From NCBI GenBank assembly GCA_903938485.1, contig CAJADF010000079.1, positions 1 through 40,107 of the forward strand: a stretch of DNA of 40,107 bases. The letters are read 5' to 3'. Made by a program: the position numbers and the translations under genes. Positions 22,916 through 30,640 of this stretch are shown here, one piece after another (position 1 is the first letter of the stretch; every line of letters begins with the position of its first letter). The stretch comes from an uncultured Methylococcaceae bacterium. Its GTDB lineage: Bacteria > Pseudomonadota > Gammaproteobacteria > Methylococcales > Methylomonadaceae. The notes below the pieces were generated by a model that searched no databases, was not told the origin of the DNA, and saw nothing but the letters and a program-made list of their open reading frames with translations.

Positions 22916-25900
22916 ATGAGTTTATCTGCTAGTTCTTCTCAGTCTGATGTAATCAGTGCAAGTCAATTACAAGAGTTACAACATATTAATTTGCAATTAG
23001 CGGCTTTAGGCCAGCCAATTTGCCAGATTGATGATGCGCAAAATTATTTACAAATTGCAGATAGTCTTTTAAAAAATTATGTTCAGCAACGTCGCTTATT
23101 AGCTAAGTATCGTTGTCCTGCAGATCAGCGTATTCAAGATTTTTTAAATACCTATTTAAAGGTTAATGGCGTTTCTGCAGATATAAATCTGCCGGGGCAG
23201 ACATTTGTCTTAGAAAGGACCGGTTTAGCAAGAGCCCTATCATTACCTTTTCAAGAAAATGAATTTCATTCAGCGTATGTAGATTCCTATCGAATGGCGC
23301 AGGGGGTATTACATAATCCTCAAAATGATAGGCGCACTACTAAAGGTGTCTTTCATATTGTTGCGGGTGGATTATCTGTGCCAGCTGACAAAAATGAGGT
23401 GCCTGTTGCTACTTATGCGCAATTATTACGTTTAGCGTTAACGCCCCCCGATGATTTGTTGGATTTACCGTTTACTAGTCAACAAGAACATTCAGCCAAA
23501 CTTTGGTTATCTTTGTCACTAAGCCCTATTGTAGTGCCTGAATTGGCCGGAGTTACACCCTCAAAAATCATGGAAACTCGATTTTTTGTGCCGGGTGGTT
23601 TGGTATCTAATTTAGATTTTGTGGAGTCTATTTTCGGTAATGCAGGGGATCCGTTTTTACCAGAAAATGATGTGGCTCTGGATATTGAACATTGGACGGG
23701 GCATACAGGCTGTATTATTTTAGCGCCCCATTTAGTGCACTGCCGCAAGCAGGATTTAGGCTTACCCCATTATAATGATGCGACGGAGCGACAACGCATA
23801 GATGGTATGTGTTGGCAAAGTCCTGATGAGTTATATAACGATGGTAAACCCTTTAAGCTAGTGTGCCGAGATATGACCGGCGTGATTGTGACCTTAATCG
23901 CTGATAATTATTTTGGTTACAGTAAAAAAGAAATCAAATCTCAAATCAGTTACTCAGCAAACCTTTTTGGCGGTTGTGAAGAAGAACATTCAGGCGGAGC
24001 GTTGGCTTTTCCTAGAGCTATTTTAGGCGAAGTGTATTTGCCACAAGTTGATCATAGTTATCATGATTATTCATTTGAGAAACTGAGCCAACAGTGGGGT
24101 GCTGATATTGCTTTACAAATAGAGGGTTATGCGATTGATAAGCGCTATCCAAGCATTGTTTTTATTCCTGAGACAGCTCAAATTAGTATTCCTAAACTGC
24201 AGATTACTTGGCAACATTCGGGAAGTTTGCGGACTTTAAAATTGCTCCATAATCATACCTATGTCTATCCAGATGGCTTTAGAGTGACTATGGAAAGGCA
24301 TCCTCATGCGCCTAGTTGGCGATTGATTGGTACATATCCAGAAGGTACTTTTTGTCATAAACCTAGCACTGTTTCTGGTGGAGGCAAGTCTGAAATTTCA
24401 AAATCTATTGCAGGTGCAGTTATTTCTGGTGCTGTATTTGTCGATGATTTTGACAAAGATATGGCGATGGTAGCGGATATTTTTAATTACGATTATTCAA
24501 AACGATTTTTAGATCCGCATCGTAATGGATCTGATCAACGGACGTTGTTGAGTAATGAGCGTACTTTAGGTTCTGTGATTAAATTGCTAACGCCGTCGGT
24601 GACGCAATATACCCATGAGTATAATCATTGGCTAAAGAAAATCCCGCAACACATTTTAGCCTTAGTGTTGATGATTAAACGGTTTTACAAAGTGGAATGG
24701 GGTCAAAACTGGCGCGAACACTTCTCGGTTGACTTAGTAAATGGCTATCCGGGTAACGAACTTAAGTTTAATGGCCGTAAATTGCTGGCGAGTTACTTAC
24801 GAGTAGGCTTTGATGAAAAGGGTGCGTGGCGGGTGTTTAAGTTAAGACAAGATTTTGCTGCATCAGAGAAAGTGCAATTAGAAGATGATATTACTGCATC
24901 AGTAGTTGTGCCAGCAAATCAGTTAGTCGGATTGAATCCACATTATAAAAATTTCAGTGTTAAATTAGTTGAGAATTGTGAACTAAGCTTTTTTCAAAGA
25001 CCAGACGATGCTGTTAATCGAGGCGCAGATTTACAAACGGAGTTGGATTTTTCGGGGACAAACAATTTCATTTCAAATTTTGAACCGCTTACTGCGAGTG
25101 ATGCGCGAGAGTTGGTTGAAGATATCGTGCATTTTGAAGAGTTTAGTCAGCCTATGCGTGAGTTGATTATGTCAGCTGCACAAAATAAAGCTGGGGAATA
25201 CTTTGTATCATCTGCACATCCGCGTTTAGTAGAAGGTAAACCGAGTCAAAATGTGCGTTATTTACAAGCAAGGCCTGATAAAGTTAATCCTATGACACGT
25301 TATTTGGCAGAATTATCAACGCGTTTAGCGCGTGGATTAAAAGCTGAGCAAGCCATTTATTTTCCTGTAAATGCGGTGATGCCCGGCAGACGCAATAATC
25401 CTAGTGACCTTAAAGCCGGTATTAGACCCTTAGCAATTTACAATCCTATACATTATCAGGAGCTTCCTGAATTGTTTATGGATTTTATTTGTAGTTTAAC
25501 GGGTAAATCACCCTCTACAACTGGAGCGGGTTCTGAAGGCGCTTTAACTAAAGGTCCGTTTAATGCTTTATCAACGACTGCTGATTTAAATACCGCATTA
25601 GTGTCTTATATTTTATGTGGATATGATGGCTATTCAACGGCTGCTGGCTATATCGGGGCAGAACGTAAAATTGATCATGATATTAGCTTATTAATTCCCG
25701 AATTATGGTCAAGATTACCCGTTGAACAACGTGATCCTCAGCATTTAATTGCGCAAGGTCAATTAGAAAAGTTGGAAGATTTCGAATATGAAGGCAAGAT
25801 AGTGTATGCCAGTCGCTTAGGATATCGAATTACCGAGTGTTTTGTGCATACTAATTTTGGTAAAATATTTGACTATCCAACTGCTGTTTTTGATGAGGCG

Positions 25901-26368
25901 ATGTTAAAACCTGAAACACAGGATATGGCTAGTTTTGTAGATGGTATTAATAATGTGAATAGCGCTCAGCAACGCGTGGCTCAGATGTACTTTAAGGATG
26001 GAACGATTAACGATGCCTGTCCACCTCTAAAAGCTTTGTTACATATCATGGCTTACGGAACTTATGAGGGTAAAGATATTAACGATGCCAGTATTAGGGA
26101 ATTATTTAAGCGTGATTACTTATTGCAAAGCGCATGGTATCAAGAGCGTTTAAGCATTAAGCAGCAAAGAGATATTGAACTTTGGCAACGACATTTTGAT
26201 TATTTATCACAGCAAATCTCACAAATAGAAGCGTCTGATGAATTGACGCCTGTTTTTGCAGAAAAATTAGAGGTAGTTGATCAACGTTTGCAAGCGTTAA
26301 AGCACGATTCATATTTGCAAAGTTTATCAGGCACTTTAGGTGCTGATTGGGTAGATCGTACTCATTAA
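22916..26368 (+). CDS. PPi-type phosphoenolpyruvate carboxykinase homologue
   Basis: An 1150-aa protein. From recall of the family it matches the long (about 1100-1150 aa) PPi-dependent PEP carboxykinases of Propionibacterium and Entamoeba, which interconvert oxaloacetate plus PPi with PEP, CO2 and phosphate. Supporting segments: RRTTKGVFHIVAGGL, FVPGGLVSNLDFVESIFGN, WTGHTGCIILAPH, DATERQRIDG, GGCEEEHSGGA (about 351-361), the phosphate-binding TVSGGGKSEISKSI (about 484-497), LGSVIKLLTPSV, TGKSPSTTGAGSEGALTKGP and AAGYIGAERKIDHDIS. No signal peptide. The length and motif order are intact. It is 112 nt after crtP and 35 nt before the O-methyltransferase. Methanotrophs are known for other PPi-linked enzymes, so the role fits. 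The alternative is a paralogue of altered function. Confidence 0.8.
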   Translation: MSLSASSSQSDVISASQLQELQHINLQLAALGQPICQIDDAQNYLQIADSLLKNYVQQRRLLAKYRCPADQRIQDFLNTYLKVNGVSADINLPGQTFVLERTGLARALSLPFQENEFHSAYVDSYRMAQGVLHNPQNDRRTTKGVFHIVAGGLSVPADKNEVPVATYAQLLRLALTPPDDLLDLPFTSQQEHSAKLWLSLSLSPIVVPELAGVTPSKIMETRFFVPGGLVSNLDFVESIFGNAGDPFLPENDVALDIEHWTGHTGCIILAPHLVHCRKQDLGLPHYNDATERQRIDGMCWQSPDELYNDGKPFKLVCRDMTGVIVTLIADNYFGYSKKEIKSQISYSANLFGGCEEEHSGGALAFPRAILGEVYLPQVDHSYHDYSFEKLSQQWGADIALQIEGYAIDKRYPSIVFIPETAQISIPKLQITWQHSGSLRTLKLLHNHTYVYPDGFRVTMERHPHAPSWRLIGTYPEGTFCHKPSTVSGGGKSEISKSIAGAVISGAVFVDDFDKDMAMVADIFNYDYSKRFLDPHRNGSDQRTLLSNERTLGSVIKLLTPSVTQYTHEYNHWLKKIPQHILALVLMIKRFYKVEWGQNWREHFSVDLVNGYPGNELKFNGRKLLASYLRVGFDEKGAWRVFKLRQDFAASEKVQLEDDITASVVVPANQLVGLNPHYKNFSVKLVENCELSFFQRPDDAVNRGADLQTELDFSGTNNFISNFEPLTASDARELVEDIVHFEEFSQPMRELIMSAAQNKAGEYFVSSAHPRLVEGKPSQNVRYLQARPDKVNPMTRYLAELSTRLARGLKAEQAIYFPVNAVMPGRRNNPSDLKAGIRPLAIYNPIHYQELPELFMDFICSLTGKSPSTTGAGSEGALTKGPFNALSTTADLNTALVSYILCGYDGYSTAAGYIGAERKIDHDISLLIPELWSRLPVEQRDPQHLIAQGQLEKLEDFEYEGKIVYASRLGYRITECFVHTNFGKIFDYPTAVFDEAMLKPETQDMASFVDGINNVNSAQQRVAQMYFKDGTINDACPPLKALLHIMAYGTYEGKDINDASIRELFKRDYLLQSAWYQERLSIKQQRDIELWQRHFDYLSQQISQIEASDELTPVFAEKLEVVDQRLQALKHDSYLQSLSGTLGADWVDRTH

Positions 26369-26403: not shown

Positions 26404-27096
26404 GTGACTGATGTTTTAAGTCCCAAAAAGATGCCGCCACCGCGTCGAACACCACCAGTCAGTCCTGCGGTAGAAAAGTACTTATTAGATTTATTGGGCC
26501 CCGCAGAAAATTCAGTATTACAAGAAATGGAAGCCTTAGCAGAAAAGAATAATTTTCCTATTGTTGGGCGTTTAGTCGGTGTGTTTATAGAAATGCTGGC
26601 TAAGATGATTAACGCCCAGCGCGTGTTTGAGTTTGGTAGTGGTTATGGTTATTCGGCTTATTGGTTTGCTAAAGCAGTGGGCTCCAGTGGACAAGTAATT
26701 TGCAGCGAGGCTGATTTTTTAAATAGAGATAAAGCTGAGCACTATTTAAGTGCTGCTGGATTATGGGACAGGATCGATTTTAAAACCGATATGGCGCAAA
26801 ATGCTTTTGCACAGACTGAGGGTTTGTTTGATATTTGCTATAACGATGTTGATAAAGGCGATTATCCCGATATTTGGTTATTGGCTAAAGATAGAATCCG
26901 TCCGGGTGGTTTATATATTGCGGATAATGTTTTGTGGCGCGGGCGAGTCGCAGCGCATTCTGGAAAAGATGTATTTCAAGGGTGGACGGAAGCCATTCGA
27001 CAACACAATCAAATGATTTTTGATGATCCTGATTTTGAGACCTTTATAAATCCGAGTCGTGATGGTGTAATAGTCGCACGTAAAAAAACAGATTAA
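26404..27096 (+). CDS. SAM-dependent O-methyltransferase (family 3, CCoAOMT-like)
   Basis: A 230-aa class I methyltransferase. Motif I is FEFGSGYGYSAYWFAKA (about 79-95), followed by VICSEAD (acidic ribose contact), then YNDVDKGDYPDIW, and RPGGLYIADNVLWRGRV, the segment that marks the YrrM/caffeoyl-CoA O-methyltransferase family (metal-linked Asp/Asn). The N-terminus MTDVLSPKKMPPPRRTPP is short, Pro-rich and basic, unlike typical members. The start is GTG, with AAGGA 8 nt upstream. Family members methylate catechols and other hydroxyls; the substrate here is not known. It sits 35 nt after the PPi-PEPCK gene and 24 nt before the RelA-like gene, so probably cotranscribed with both. Confidence 0.87.
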   Translation: MTDVLSPKKMPPPRRTPPVSPAVEKYLLDLLGPAENSVLQEMEALAEKNNFPIVGRLVGVFIEMLAKMINAQRVFEFGSGYGYSAYWFAKAVGSSGQVICSEADFLNRDKAEHYLSAAGLWDRIDFKTDMAQNAFAQTEGLFDICYNDVDKGDYPDIWLLAKDRIRPGGLYIADNVLWRGRVAAHSGKDVFQGWTEAIRQHNQMIFDDPDFETFINPSRDGVIVARKKTD

Positions 27097-27120: not shown

Positions 27121-28614
27121 ATGCAACACAGATCAGCCAGCCAAGAACTTCATCATGAAATATTTGGCTCTATACTAGATAGGTCAGACTTAAGCCCTTA
27201 TCTTTTATTATCCGCCGAAAATTATGCGACTGCGCTTAAGCAGGCCACAAAAATGATGAGTAACCGTGGCTTTGATGTTGTAGATAATGGCGAGTTGCAA
27301 GAAAGTGAGCAGAAGCGAGCCTTAGTGTACGTTGAGCGAACTTATCGGTACTTTTTGAAGTGGTTGTTTCCCTTTGTAAAACGCCAATTAGAGGCGTTGA
27401 TTGTCTTAGAATCAAGTAATCTGGCTTTATATCAACACAGTTTGGCGGCCATTAAACAGCTTGAAACGCTCTTAAAAAATCCGGCCTTTAAACAGATTGT
27501 GGAGCAAGATCCTCGACATTTGTTTTTATTAGCCTCTTCAAGTAAATACCCTACGGTTTTTCATGGTTATCAGGGTAAAAAGCTGATTGTGCCTCTGGAA
27601 TGGCAGCAAACGGCTTGTGCCATGTTAAAGATGGGCTATTTGATTAAATCCATAGAAGAAGAAAGCCAAGATATAAATGACTTTGCCCAGTTAGGTTTCT
27701 TTTTAGAAGCGGAAAATCAAAGCCTGAATGACTTATTTAATTATGATTGGGAAAATCCTCAGCATATTCCAGAAAGTGAACCCGCTCAGAATGCCTTTGT
27801 GAAGATATCGGCTTTCTTTCATAAATTAAGAGAGTCAGTGAGTTTGGATGCGGACGGCGAGGGCTTTGTCTTTGATAGTGGTGATGGCGTCCGTGTTGAT
27901 ATCGCTGAGATTAAAGCCCGTTTAAAAAGTCCTGAAAGTATGTTTACCAAGCTCGGTAAAAATCTCGAAGGCGAGGCGTATGATATTAGAGATATTTTGG
28001 CCATTACCTTCATCCTAAGAGATAAGGACGATACCTTAAAGTTGTTTCATGCCTTGCAAAAGAAAGGCGTTATCTTGCAAGAAAACACCCATTCTCAATC
28101 TATCACTCAAACTTTGTTTGATAACCCAGAACACATGGTGGAAGCCGTACGCAGATTAATGATTAGTTTGTCGCAAAGTGCGGGTCATGAGGCCAGTGTG
28201 ACAGATCAGGAAGTCTTACTGAATGCGCAAACTTTTTATGATGCACTGAGTATGAATGCCGAGAAGAATCAACATTCCTCTGCTGGACACCGCAAGTTTC
28301 AATGTAAGATTAGTTTTTCTTTGCCTATTCATCGGCAAGCCAGAACCCATAAAATTATTATTCCCGGTACAGATGTCTATGCACGTCGAAATGAGATTAA
28401 TAAGAAAACCCAAGAGCATACCTTAGGGGTTGAATTACGGATTTCTGATGAAGAAAGCTGGCGTACTTCTGAGCAGAAAGGCGATTCTCATCACAGTGCC
28501 TATAAGTTTAGGCAGCTTATTGCGGTGATGAATCGGGTCTTTAAGAACGTGTACTATATGCCTAAAGACAGCATAGCCCAGTTGAAGAAAGATCAGGGTG
28601 TGTTGTTTTCTTGA
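27121..28614 (+). CDS. conserved protein with divergent RelA/SpoT-like synthetase half
   Basis: A 497-aa protein without an assigned function. Residues 1-230 are mostly helical, with no HD hydrolase motif. Residues 255-470 show the order of elements of a (p)ppGpp synthetase: RLKSPESMFTKLGKN (267-281; Arg267, Lys269 and Lys277 match the R-x-K...K of RelA), DIRDILAITF (288-297; Asp291 matches the Mg-binding Asp), GVELRIS (436-442; Glu438 matches the catalytic Glu of IEIQIRT) and SEQKGDSHHSAYKFRQ (450-465; compare AE-G-AAH-YK). The usual GYxSxH element is weak (GHRKFQCKIS). It may make an alarmone-like nucleotide or be a degenerate relative. AAGG lies 9 nt upstream of the ATG. It is the last gene of the block, before a strong terminator. 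It may belong to the TIGR04552-type family. Confidence 0.78.
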   Translation: MQHRSASQELHHEIFGSILDRSDLSPYLLLSAENYATALKQATKMMSNRGFDVVDNGELQESEQKRALVYVERTYRYFLKWLFPFVKRQLEALIVLESSNLALYQHSLAAIKQLETLLKNPAFKQIVEQDPRHLFLLASSSKYPTVFHGYQGKKLIVPLEWQQTACAMLKMGYLIKSIEEESQDINDFAQLGFFLEAENQSLNDLFNYDWENPQHIPESEPAQNAFVKISAFFHKLRESVSLDADGEGFVFDSGDGVRVDIAEIKARLKSPESMFTKLGKNLEGEAYDIRDILAITFILRDKDDTLKLFHALQKKGVILQENTHSQSITQTLFDNPEHMVEAVRRLMISLSQSAGHEASVTDQEVLLNAQTFYDALSMNAEKNQHSSAGHRKFQCKISFSLPIHRQARTHKIIIPGTDVYARRNEINKKTQEHTLGVELRISDEESWRTSEQKGDSHHSAYKFRQLIAVMNRVFKNVYYMPKDSIAQLKKDQGVLFS

Positions 28615-28618
28615 GACA

Positions 28619-28662: not shown

Positions 28663-30354
28663 TTAAGCTGCTTTACGTTTACGATTTAAACCTAAAAAGC
28701 CCATTAAGCCCGTTAAAAATAACCAAACTGCTGCTGGTACTGGTACAGCAGAAGGTGTAATAGCTACCCCACCAAAACGCGAACCTGCAGTTGCAGTTTC
28801 TAATACACTGAAAGAGGTATTAAGTGCTGTTGAAGTTGAGCCAATGTTAATAGCAACGATTTGATTGGGATCAGCACCTAAATCATGAGTTGTTTCGTTA
28901 CTAACAGTAGAAGTAGTACCAAAGATAGTGAAAGAACCATCAGCATTCTTTTGACCAGCAATGTTACGTAAACCATCTTCTTGAACTGACCAACCTAAAG
29001 CCGCTTGTGCAGCAGAATCTAAATGACCCACTAAACCTGTTTGGAATACTTGTGTTTCAGTCCAAGTACCACCTACTTTTTGCCACTCTTGTAAACCGGC
29101 TTGAGATGTTACTTTGTTTAAAATGTTAACAGCATCAGTACGTATTCCATCGCCTTCATCTGCTACGAATAAAGTGTTTGCATCCGCTTCCCAAATACCA
29201 AAAGGGTGGAAACTGGCTGCTGGTGATTGATATGCATGAGCCGTTAATGTACCCGCTGTAATTGCAGCGGCATTAGCCGTGTTATATGTAGTTGCCGCCG
29301 CATTAGCGGTAACAATAGCACCTGAAGCTGTTTCAATAACTTTTTCAGATACCGCGTTAAAGCCAGGTAATGGAGTGATTGTTGCATTAGAAGGTAATTG
29401 ACCACCATTGGCTAAAGCGCCCGCAGCACCCACTTGATAAACCGTGTCTACACCGTTGCTGCCACTGCCTTTAGAAACATATAAAGTACCGTCGCTTGAT
29501 ACTGTCATGCCACGGAAGTTGTCGTCTTTACCTGTTTTGTCAGCTGCATAGTTTGTACCCGCTGCTTTAGTAGGGTCTTGCAATTGTTGTAGTGCAAAAC
29601 CGTTTTGATAGCCAGTAGCACTAGTATTTGAACCTTGTGAAAGACCAATCACTGAAGTATTACCAGAACTAGTTGCAGCAATAGTTTGGACACCCGTGTT
29701 ATTACTTAAGGCTACTAATCCAGCCGCACCAGCCGATCCATTACCCGCATTACCGACCATATAATATTGGCCATTAGCTAATACAGCTGCTCTGCCATTG
29801 TTACCACTGTAGGCATTTACGTTAGTTACAGACACAGCACCTGAAGTTAAATCAACAGTACCAATAGCTCTTGGAACAGTTGTCGTTACAGGGTTAGTTG
29901 AGTCATAAGCTTGAGCAGTATTTGAGTTAGAGACATCAATCGCATCAACCGGAGAAGCGTAACCCATAAAGCTAACTGATTGACCGTCAGTTGAAACGTT
30001 TAAGGCTAATTCTGATTTAGAAGCAAAGCTGGTAGTCATTACACTTGAATCAACAGCTAGGTTATTAACGATTGTTCCGCTAGTAGTCAATTGTTGCAAA
30101 GTGATCGCTGATGAAACCCCAAAAGATGCATCAGGTACTTCATTTTTAAATACGTTTAATGAGCTGCCATCATTGGTAGCTTTACCACCACCAGACAATG
30201 TTTGACCAACTGTCACATTAGCATTATTGTCATAAGTTGTTTCTGAAACAATTAAATTGCCAGGTACAAAATATGGATCCGCTAGAGAAGTTTGAGTATA
30301 TCCCAGTGAAATTATTGCAACAGCTAAAGCTGTTTTTTTATAAGAAAAAGACAT
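28663..30354 (-). CDS. secreted PEP-CTERM-type protein, unknown function
   Basis: A 563-aa exported protein. It has an N-terminal signal peptide (MSFSYKKTALAVAIISLGY..SLADP, cut near residue 25), then a Ser/Thr/Ala/Gly/Asn-rich, beta-rich body with repeated GTLYVSKGSG, NTLFVADEGDGIR and GRAAVLANGQYYMVG segments suggesting a beta-propeller, and a C-terminal sorting signal: VPVPAAVWLF, a hydrophobic helix and the basic end NRKRKAA. That tail is the VPxPAAVWLF variant of PEP-CTERM signals, cut by exosortases; none is in the window. Only one or two Cys or fewer are seen, as usual for surface proteins. GGA lies about 7 nt before the ATG. The gene lies between the 3' end of the RelA-like gene and a diverged copy of that end, so it may have been inserted here. 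Confidence 0.88.
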   Translation of the reverse strand: MSFSYKKTALAVAIISLGYTQTSLADPYFVPGNLIVSETTYDNNANVTVGQTLSGGGKATNDGSSLNVFKNEVPDASFGVSSAITLQQLTTSGTIVNNLAVDSSVMTTSFASKSELALNVSTDGQSVSFMGYASPVDAIDVSNSNTAQAYDSTNPVTTTVPRAIGTVDLTSGAVSVTNVNAYSGNNGRAAVLANGQYYMVGNAGNGSAGAAGLVALSNNTGVQTIAATSSGNTSVIGLSQGSNTSATGYQNGFALQQLQDPTKAAGTNYAADKTGKDDNFRGMTVSSDGTLYVSKGSGSNGVDTVYQVGAAGALANGGQLPSNATITPLPGFNAVSEKVIETASGAIVTANAAATTYNTANAAAITAGTLTAHAYQSPAASFHPFGIWEADANTLFVADEGDGIRTDAVNILNKVTSQAGLQEWQKVGGTWTETQVFQTGLVGHLDSAAQAALGWSVQEDGLRNIAGQKNADGSFTIFGTTSTVSNETTHDLGADPNQIVAINIGSTSTALNTSFSVLETATAGSRFGGVAITPSAVPVPAAVWLFLTGLMGFLGLNRKRKAA

Positions 30355-30540: not shown

Positions 30541-30615
30541 ATTAAAAATGTTTATTACATGCCTAAAGATAGCATCGCTCAGTTAAAGAAAGATCAGAGC
30601 GTGTTGTTTTCTTAA
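30541..30615 (+). pseudogene. relic copy of the 3' end of the RelA-like gene
   Basis: The last 25 codons of the 27121-28614 gene recur here with 62 of 75 bases identical. Of 24 sense codons, 22 keep the amino acid (NVYYMPKDSIAQLKKDQ then SVLFS) and nine of the differences are synonymous; the stop is TAA instead of TGA. A weaker match may continue to about 30530 after a 1-nt deletion. Upstream of that nothing is similar. It has no start and cannot be a gene. The synonymous pattern says it came from a functional, long-diverged homologue. Confidence 0.85.
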
Positions 30616-30640
30616 GTTATTGATTTAATTGCCTGATGAT

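What the first reader, a model, noticed from the sequence alone, without database searches (positions are those of the whole stretch)
27121..28614. Divergent RelA/SpoT-like synthetase at the end of a carotenoid/PPi-PEPCK block
The C-terminal half shows, in the right order, counterparts of RelA synthetase elements: R267-x-K269...K277, Asp291 in DIRDILAI, Glu438 in GVELRIS and a SEQKGDSHHSAYK segment like the AE-G-AAH-YK of RelA. The GYxSxH guanine-stacking element is poorly kept and the Arg after DILAI is Thr. The gene may encode an unusual alarmone-type nucleotide synthetase or a remodelled nucleotidyltransferase, tied to a membrane pigment and PPi metabolism operon. The similarity was found by eye only.
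Basis: partly seen in the sequence, partly recalled or inferred. Interest (0 to 1): 0.72.

Follow-up and report, generated by a model that had tools for sequence, protein, structure and literature searches.

The report
Unrecognised relative of RelA-type alarmone synthetases
A methane-eating bacterium carries an unannotated protein predicted to fold like the makers of the bacterial stress signal ppGpp; it keeps their catalytic core but has altered base-reading residues, so it may make a different nucleotide signal, and its relatives form a family with no assigned function.

Summary
The 497-aa protein (27121-28614, +) is a divergent relative of RelA/SpoT (RSH) synthetases. PF04607 RelA_SpoT is its best Pfam match, below cut-off (19.6 vs 27 bits); 44 of 47 aligned sequences match it at E<=0.01. 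Nearest named families are the uncharacterised TIGR04552/TIGR04562 (E ~1e-18, below cut-off); TIGR04562 occurs in 143 of 235 genomes of the Myxococcota. An AlphaFold2 model (pLDDT 89.3) has RSH synthetases as Foldseek ranks 1-43, but no hit reaches E 0.001 and shown TM-scores stay under 0.5. R267, K269, S273, K277, D291 are kept in 47 of 47 sequences, E438 in 46 of 46. Base-contacting positions differ equally invariantly: T296 (RelSeq R269), H390 (Y308), R440 (Q325). Best reading: an ATP-using, Mg-dependent pyrophosphokinase with changed nucleotide recognition; product unknown, untested. The PPi-PEPCK neighbourhood is confined to some Methylococcales (11 of 19 loci; 0 of 38 elsewhere). A quick tree suggests transfer from a Nitrospirota-like source.

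The parts
27121..28614 (+). CDS, 497 aa: divergent RelA/SpoT-type synthetase-like protein
27121..27837 (+). Residues 1-239: mainly helical N-terminal region, no Pfam match; residues from 129 on align with TIGR04552/62
27838..28545 (+). Residues 240-475: synthetase-like domain (TIGR04562 match 231-475)
27919..27951 (+). R267-x-K269...S273...K277, matching RelSeq R241, K243, S247, K251 (ATP side); each 47/47
27991..27993 (+). Asp291, matching RelSeq catalytic Asp264; 47/47
28006..28008 (+). Thr296 in place of RelSeq Arg269 (adenine-sandwich Arg); Thr 47/47, against Arg 31/31 in TIGR04552/62 relatives
28063..28287 (+). Residues 315-389: lengthened stretch (Asp291 to His390 is 99 residues, against 44 from D264 to Y308 in RelSeq) with its own conserved motifs (ILQEN, SITQTLFD, N383)
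28288..28302 (+). H390-R-K-F-Q394 where RSH has Y308-x-x-x-H312 of GYxSxH; His 47/47 and Gln 47/47 (the Q394-H312 match holds only if read without a gap)
28432..28440 (+). Glu438 (RelSeq Glu323) 46/46, and Arg440 (RelSeq Gln325) 46/46
28471..28506 (+). E451...H458..Y461-K462, counterpart of the AE-G-AAH-YK segment of RelA
   Evidence: direct reading
26404..27096 (+). O-methyltransferase gene 24 bp upstream, same strand (local neighbour only)
22916..26368 (+). PPi-type PEP carboxykinase gene further upstream, same strand (local neighbour only)

Best explanation
The gene encodes a member of an unrecognised branch of the RelA/SpoT synthetase superfamily, sister to the uncharacterised TIGR04552/TIGR04562 families. 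Shown here: remote homology, predicted fold, motif order, and invariance of the phosphate/Mg core (R267, K269, S273, K277, D291, E438). Inferred: it binds ATP-Mg and transfers a pyrophosphate to a ribose 3'-OH, with D291 and E438 holding the metal and E438 activating the acceptor, as proposed for RSH enzymes. Three positions that in RelSeq touch the two bases or the product (R269, Y308, Q325) are invariantly Thr, His and Arg, and the stretch from D291 to H390 is 55 residues longer than in RelSeq. I therefore infer that the acceptor, and perhaps how the donor base is held, differs from GTP/GDP synthetases: the product is more likely a non-standard pyrophosphorylated nucleotide or RNA end than ppGpp. 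The gene is under strong selection, lacks a conserved partner that could be an antitoxin, and stands alongside two ordinary long RSH genes.
For: PF04607 best Pfam hit, in 44 of 47 aligned sequences and 21 of 27 TIGR04552/62 proteins. PF04607 finds two TIGR04552/62 proteins above its own cut-off among 37 genomes of their phylum. The TIGR04562 model in turn hits five 726-736-aa frames in other genomes (the one read, L027, is a long RSH). Profile comparisons with controls. TIGR profile against PDB: best hits YwaC (E 0.0018) and RelSeq (0.0024). Model pLDDT 89.3, pTM 0.87; Foldseek ranks 1-43 all RSH synthetases, best 6fgx E 1.6e-3, prob 1.00; best non-RSH row E 0.64, prob 0.03. Residue table, RelSeq numbering, residue roles from passages of PMC7983052 and PMC13299517. 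Purifying selection. Two canonical RSH genes elsewhere in the genome.
Against: Below the curated cut-offs of PF04607, TIGR04552 and TIGR04562; not listed in the own-genome PF04607 search at E<=0.001. Foldseek gives no hit at E<=0.001; TM-scores by target length are 0.38-0.47 for the small synthetases of ranks 1-25, rmsd 6.7-14.3 A. The 497-aa subfamily profile alone does not find RSH and is within its permuted controls. The good model came with the TIGR proteins and other phyla in its alignment (the first, with 20 genus sequences, was poor), and AlphaFold2 was trained on PDB structures, RSH among them (general knowledge). Loss of the stacking Tyr and one adenine-sandwich Arg could also mean weak or no activity. 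No assay, no coordinates at hand to measure the active site, no neighbour conserved across phyla to indicate a pathway.
Confidence: 0.6

Rival explanations
1. It is an ordinary (p)ppGpp (or pGpp) synthetase that reads guanine in another way: His390 replaces the stacking Tyr and other residues replace the lost Arg.
For: Catalytic core fully kept; His can stack on a purine (general knowledge); nearest folds are the GTP-using RelP and RelQ.
Against: Residues that contact the bases and the product in RelSeq are changed at once and invariantly; the genome already has two long RSH genes.
Confidence: 0.2
2. It has lost transferase activity and serves as a nucleotide-binding sensor or scaffold.
For: One adenine-sandwich Arg and the Tyr are lost in all 47 aligned sequences.
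Against: R267, K269, K277, D291 and E438 are invariant over members down to about 49% identity, which a dead site would not need.
Confidence: 0.13
3. It is a toxic small alarmone synthetase of the toxSAS kind (tRNA or adenosine pyrophosphokinase toxin).
For: toxSAS enzymes share the fold and use other acceptors (CapRel among the Foldseek hits; acceptors from passages of PMC11559606).
Against: No neighbour conserved across phyla in the fetched flanks of 67 loci; no hit in PADLOC, the plasmid collection or the phage collection; one clade in Methylococcales.
Confidence: 0.05
4. The RSH likeness is fortuitous and this is another nucleotidyltransferase or an unrelated fold.
For: Weak scores; TM-scores under 0.5; the subfamily alone does not find RSH by profile.
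Against: Several lines agree with the motifs in register.
Confidence: 0.04

Closest known systems
TIGR04552 / TIGR04562 (NCBIfam subfamilies, 'TIGR04552 family protein', no function given)
   Same: Homologous over residues 129-475 (hhalign E 1.9e-19); same Lys/Ser/Lys, Asp and Glu core
   Different: Window protein is longer (497 aa against models of 352/356 positions), scores about half the cut-offs, and has R267, T296, H390, R440 where 31 of these have K/G/S, R, Y (30 of 31), Q
Small alarmone synthetases RelP/SAS2 and RelQ/SAS1 (PDB 6fgx, 6ex0, 5ded)
   Same: Top fold matches; same catalytic elements in the same order
   Different: About 10-15% identity; 497 aa with a helical N-terminal region and a longer stretch before the Tyr/His position; base-recognition residues changed
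Long RSH (RelA, SpoT, Rel; PDB 1vj7)
   Same: Synthetase motifs map to RelSeq R241, K243, S247, K251, D264, E323
   Different: No Pfam HD, TGS or ACT match; RelSeq R269, Y308, Q325 replaced
toxSAS (FaRel2, CapRel, PhRel)
   Same: Synthetase fold with non-GTP acceptors as precedent (passages of PMC11559606)
   Different: No conserved neighbour that could be an antitoxin; no match in the plasmid and phage collections

Membership tests
RelA_SpoT synthetase (PF04607) | Score at or above Pfam's gathering cut-off (27 bits) | tested here: not met
   19.6 bits, E 0.0011; two TIGR04552/62 relatives do reach it
RelA_SpoT synthetase (PF04607) | Catalytic Asp and Glu (RelSeq D264, E323) | tested here: met
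   D291 47/47, E438 46/46; numbering
RelA_SpoT synthetase (PF04607) | Phosphate-binding Lys pair (RelSeq K243, K251) | tested here: met
   K269, K277 47/47
RelA_SpoT synthetase (PF04607) | Arg pair sandwiching the ATP adenine (RelSeq R241, R269) | tested here: not met
   R267 kept 47/47, the second is Thr296 47/47
RelA_SpoT synthetase (PF04607) | Guanine-stacking Tyr of GYxSxH (RelSeq Y308) | tested here: not met
   His390 47/47; Tyr invariant in the 11 canonical RSH domains aligned
RelA_SpoT synthetase (PF04607) | Synthetase fold | tested here: met
   Predicted model only: Foldseek ranks 1-43 all RSH, prob 1.00 at the top, but best E 1.6e-3 and shown TM-scores under 0.5
RelA_SpoT synthetase (PF04607) | ATP:nucleotide 3'-pyrophosphotransferase activity | not testable with these tools
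   needs a biochemical assay
TIGR04552 / TIGR04562 | Curated score cut-offs 125 / 140 bits | tested here: not met
   67 / 68.1 bits; all 47 aligned sequences match both models at E<=0.001
TIGR04552 / TIGR04562 | Homology over most of the family's length | tested here: met
   hhalign 274 columns, E 1.9e-19
toxSAS | Adjacent antitoxin or fused antitoxin domain | tested here: not met
   No neighbour conserved across phyla in fetched flanks; no PADLOC hit
Long RSH | HD hydrolase, TGS, ACT domains | tested here: not met
   No such Pfam match

The most novel reading that the evidence does not exclude
TIGR04552/TIGR04562 plus this 497-aa subfamily form an overlooked further kind of RSH-type enzyme, besides long RSH and small alarmone synthetases. 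It is present in most sampled Myxococcota genomes and scattered through Nitrospirota, Spirochaetota and methanotrophs, and makes a nucleotide or RNA-end signal that is not ppGpp.
Probability: 0.3. Interest if true: 0.85.

Novelty: new variant of a known kind. Interest (0 to 1): 0.62.

Why it matters
Alarmones steer bacterial growth, and the known acceptors of this fold (GTP/GDP, adenosine nucleotides, tRNA) each led to new biology. Here a family named only by number, found in 143 of 235 sampled genomes of the Myxococcota, is tied to that fold, and its unusual branch keeps the reaction core while all aligned members change the base-contacting residues in the same way. That gives a specific, testable prediction of a new pyrophosphorylated product, with obvious test positions (D291, E438, H390, T296, R440).

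Tried and rejected
First structure prediction with 20 genus-level sequences was poor (pLDDT 51.5) and was not used. hmmsearch of the PDB with the 47-row alignment A7 gave no RSH hit, only weak unrelated ones. phmmer with the window protein found nothing in the PDB. PHROGs gave only a weak E 0.29 hit, PADLOC none. Plasmids and phages: no match. Six viral-contig scans found no relative; the later ones also served to see which peptide patterns the tool chose. The Pfam YceM-like_C match (E 0.0092) was rejected: 1 of 47 aligned sequences. Gene neighbourhood as a guide to function was rejected as general evidence. Literature: 'TIGR04552' occurs in one paper of the library, in a mutation table, one passage seen; 'TIGR04562' in none. 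Broader searches were seen as listings; nothing listed concerned this family by title or abstract start. In the 2011 RSH survey PMC3153485 I saw only 12 passages found for a few terms: Nitrospirae listed with Rel only, no occurrence of Myxococc- or Bdellovibrio in the main text. These searches cover open-licence PMC papers only.

Full report
1. The gene. The ORF at 27121-28614 (+) encodes 497 aa. The window's genome has two canonical long RSH genes (PF04607 at 153.2 and 150.5 bits; the window gene is not listed at E<=0.001), so this is not the housekeeping enzyme.

2. Family evidence. Pfam: RelA_SpoT PF04607, 19.6 bits against a cut-off of 27. NCBIfam: TIGR04562 and TIGR04552 at E 7.8e-19 and 1.7e-18, residues 228-475, both under their cut-offs; both carry only the name 'TIGR04552 family protein'. 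Of 47 aligned sequences (window plus 46 loci), 44 match PF04607 at E<=0.01 and all 47 match both TIGR models. Of 27 TIGR-type proteins, 21 match PF04607, best 1.2e-6. In a PF04607 search of 37 genomes of the Myxococcota, two such proteins pass Pfam's own cut-off (27.8 bits; 26.9, or 31.6 with neighbouring pieces). Conversely the TIGR04562 model hit 5 open frames of 726-736 aa in other genomes, with the own genome 6 of 299; the one I read (L027) is a long RSH.

3. Distribution. 24 of 61 genomes searched as relatives, own included, have the gene, all in the window's genus (24 of 35 genomes of that genus). In the order, 22 of 251, including 5 from two other genera of the family. In a class sample, only the window's genome of 274. 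A scan of one genome per species found 66 loci: Methylococcales (28), many labelled Nitrospirota or Thermodesulfovibrionia, and single MAGs labelled Myxococcales, Syntrophobacterales, Deferribacteres and two Spirochaetes, 47-99% identical. Its two peptide patterns favour close relatives, so the count is a lower bound. In the phylum of a Thermodesulfovibrio-labelled genome, 12 of 198. TIGR04562: 143 of 235 genomes in the phylum of the Myxococcales-labelled genome G818 (called Myxococcota here), 141 above cut-off; in none of 14 control genomes. G818, behind locus L100, has both a true TIGR04552/62 gene (320 bits) and this subfamily. In a quick tree of 65 rows (59 of 66 loci, the window, 5 TIGR proteins) rooted on the distant TIGR proteins, Methylococcales form one clade (SH-aLRT 100) among Nitrospirota lineages, which suggests one transfer into methanotrophs; long branches make deep placements unsure.

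4. Alignments. A7 holds the window protein and 46 of the 66 loci (others, mostly near-duplicates, left out). A8 adds 31 TIGR-type proteins. A9 holds 27 of those 31. A10 holds 11 canonical RSH domains of the 12 I extracted out of 32 loci. hhalign: A7-A9 E 1.9e-19; A9-A10 3.4e-4 over 112 columns through all motifs; A8-A10 1.1e-4 over 53 columns, first half only; A7-A10 not significant (E 0.13). Controls: 60 column permutations and a reversal of A10. A8 and A9 exceed all of them (39.1 against at most 26.3; 35.4 against at most 23.3); A7 (18.8) does not exceed its own (maximum 31.6).

5. Residues. In A7: R267, K269, S273, K277, D291, T296, N383, H390, Q394 47/47; E438, R440, H458, Y461 46/46 (one partial sequence). 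In the 31 TIGR proteins: K269, S273, K277, D291, N383 and E438 positions 31/31 identical, but Arg at 296 (31/31), Tyr at 390 (30/31; one Phe), Gln at 440 (31/31), and Lys, Gly or Ser at 267. In the 11 RSH domains the Arg, Tyr and Gln counterparts are invariant. Against RelSeq (1vj7; residue numbers counted from the printed alignments): R241, K243, S247, K251, D264, E323 correspond to R267, K269, S273, K277, D291, E438; R269, Y308, Q325 correspond to T296, H390, R440. The match of Q394 to H312 depends on an ungapped reading; MAFFT places a gap there. In PMC7983052 (passages; a homology model with simulations) R241 and R269 sandwich the ATP adenine and Y308 stacks on guanine. In PMC13299517 (passages) D264G and E323Q are reported to abolish synthesis and Gln325 is among the residues binding pppGpp. 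So the reaction core is kept and base contacts are changed.

6. Structure. With A8 the model has mean pLDDT 89.3 and pTM 0.87; with 20 genus sequences it was poor. Foldseek against the PDB: 99 matches with E<=10, 50 shown; ranks 1-43 all RSH synthetases (RelP, RelQ, RelSeq, RelA, CapRel and others), 47 of the 50 rows shown; best E 1.6e-3 at probability 1.00; first non-RSH row E 0.64 at probability 0.03; none at E<=0.001; TM-scores of the rows shown below 0.5. The match is consistent and specific, but remote.

7. Context. The O-methyltransferase gene ends 24 bp before the start codon. PPi-PEPCK is confirmed by PDB match. O-methyltransferase adjacent in 14 of 25 and PEPCK in 11 of 19 Methylococcales loci with enough flank (window included); 0 of 38 elsewhere within the fetched flanks. 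No neighbour is conserved across phyla. dN/dS against close relatives is 0.016-0.033 in 5 of 8 pairs (dS above 1 in 4 of them); the other 3 are saturated.

8. Verdict. A divergent RSH-type synthetase of an unrecognised subfamily; pyrophosphate transfer is likely, acceptor unknown. It works like an RSH synthetase by inference; by curated cut-offs and base-recognition residues it is not filed as a member of PF04607 or of TIGR04552/62.

Noticed in passing
window 28541-28615 and 30542-30616: The last 24 codons of the gene occur a second time, 84% identical in DNA, just beyond the PEP-CTERM-type gene at 28663-30354 (-), as if that gene had been inserted with duplication of the 3' end.
   Followed up: partly
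L080, L085, L088, L089, L091, L095, L096, L104, L106: In 9 of 38 non-Methylococcales loci the fetched flanks hold ammonium-transporter-like genes, often with PII-like genes; four loci also have a glutamine synthetase-like gene (named by reading the sequences, not by a family search).
   Followed up: partly
L178, L182, L193, L194: In 4 of 20 Myxococcota loci the TIGR04552-type gene lies upstream of genes that look like guanylate kinase, MTA phosphorylase and a sugar kinase (named by reading).
   Followed up: no
PMC9888234, gene DOE51_RS08710: A TIGR04552 family gene of Bdellovibrio sp. NC01 took a small indel in an evolution experiment (one table passage seen).
   Followed up: no
A8 columns of residues 325-332 and 383: A conserved S-x-x-x-TQTL stretch (N-T-L in many TIGR proteins) and an Asn383 invariant in 78 of 78 rows lie in the lengthened stretch before His390; possible acceptor pocket.
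   Followed up: partly
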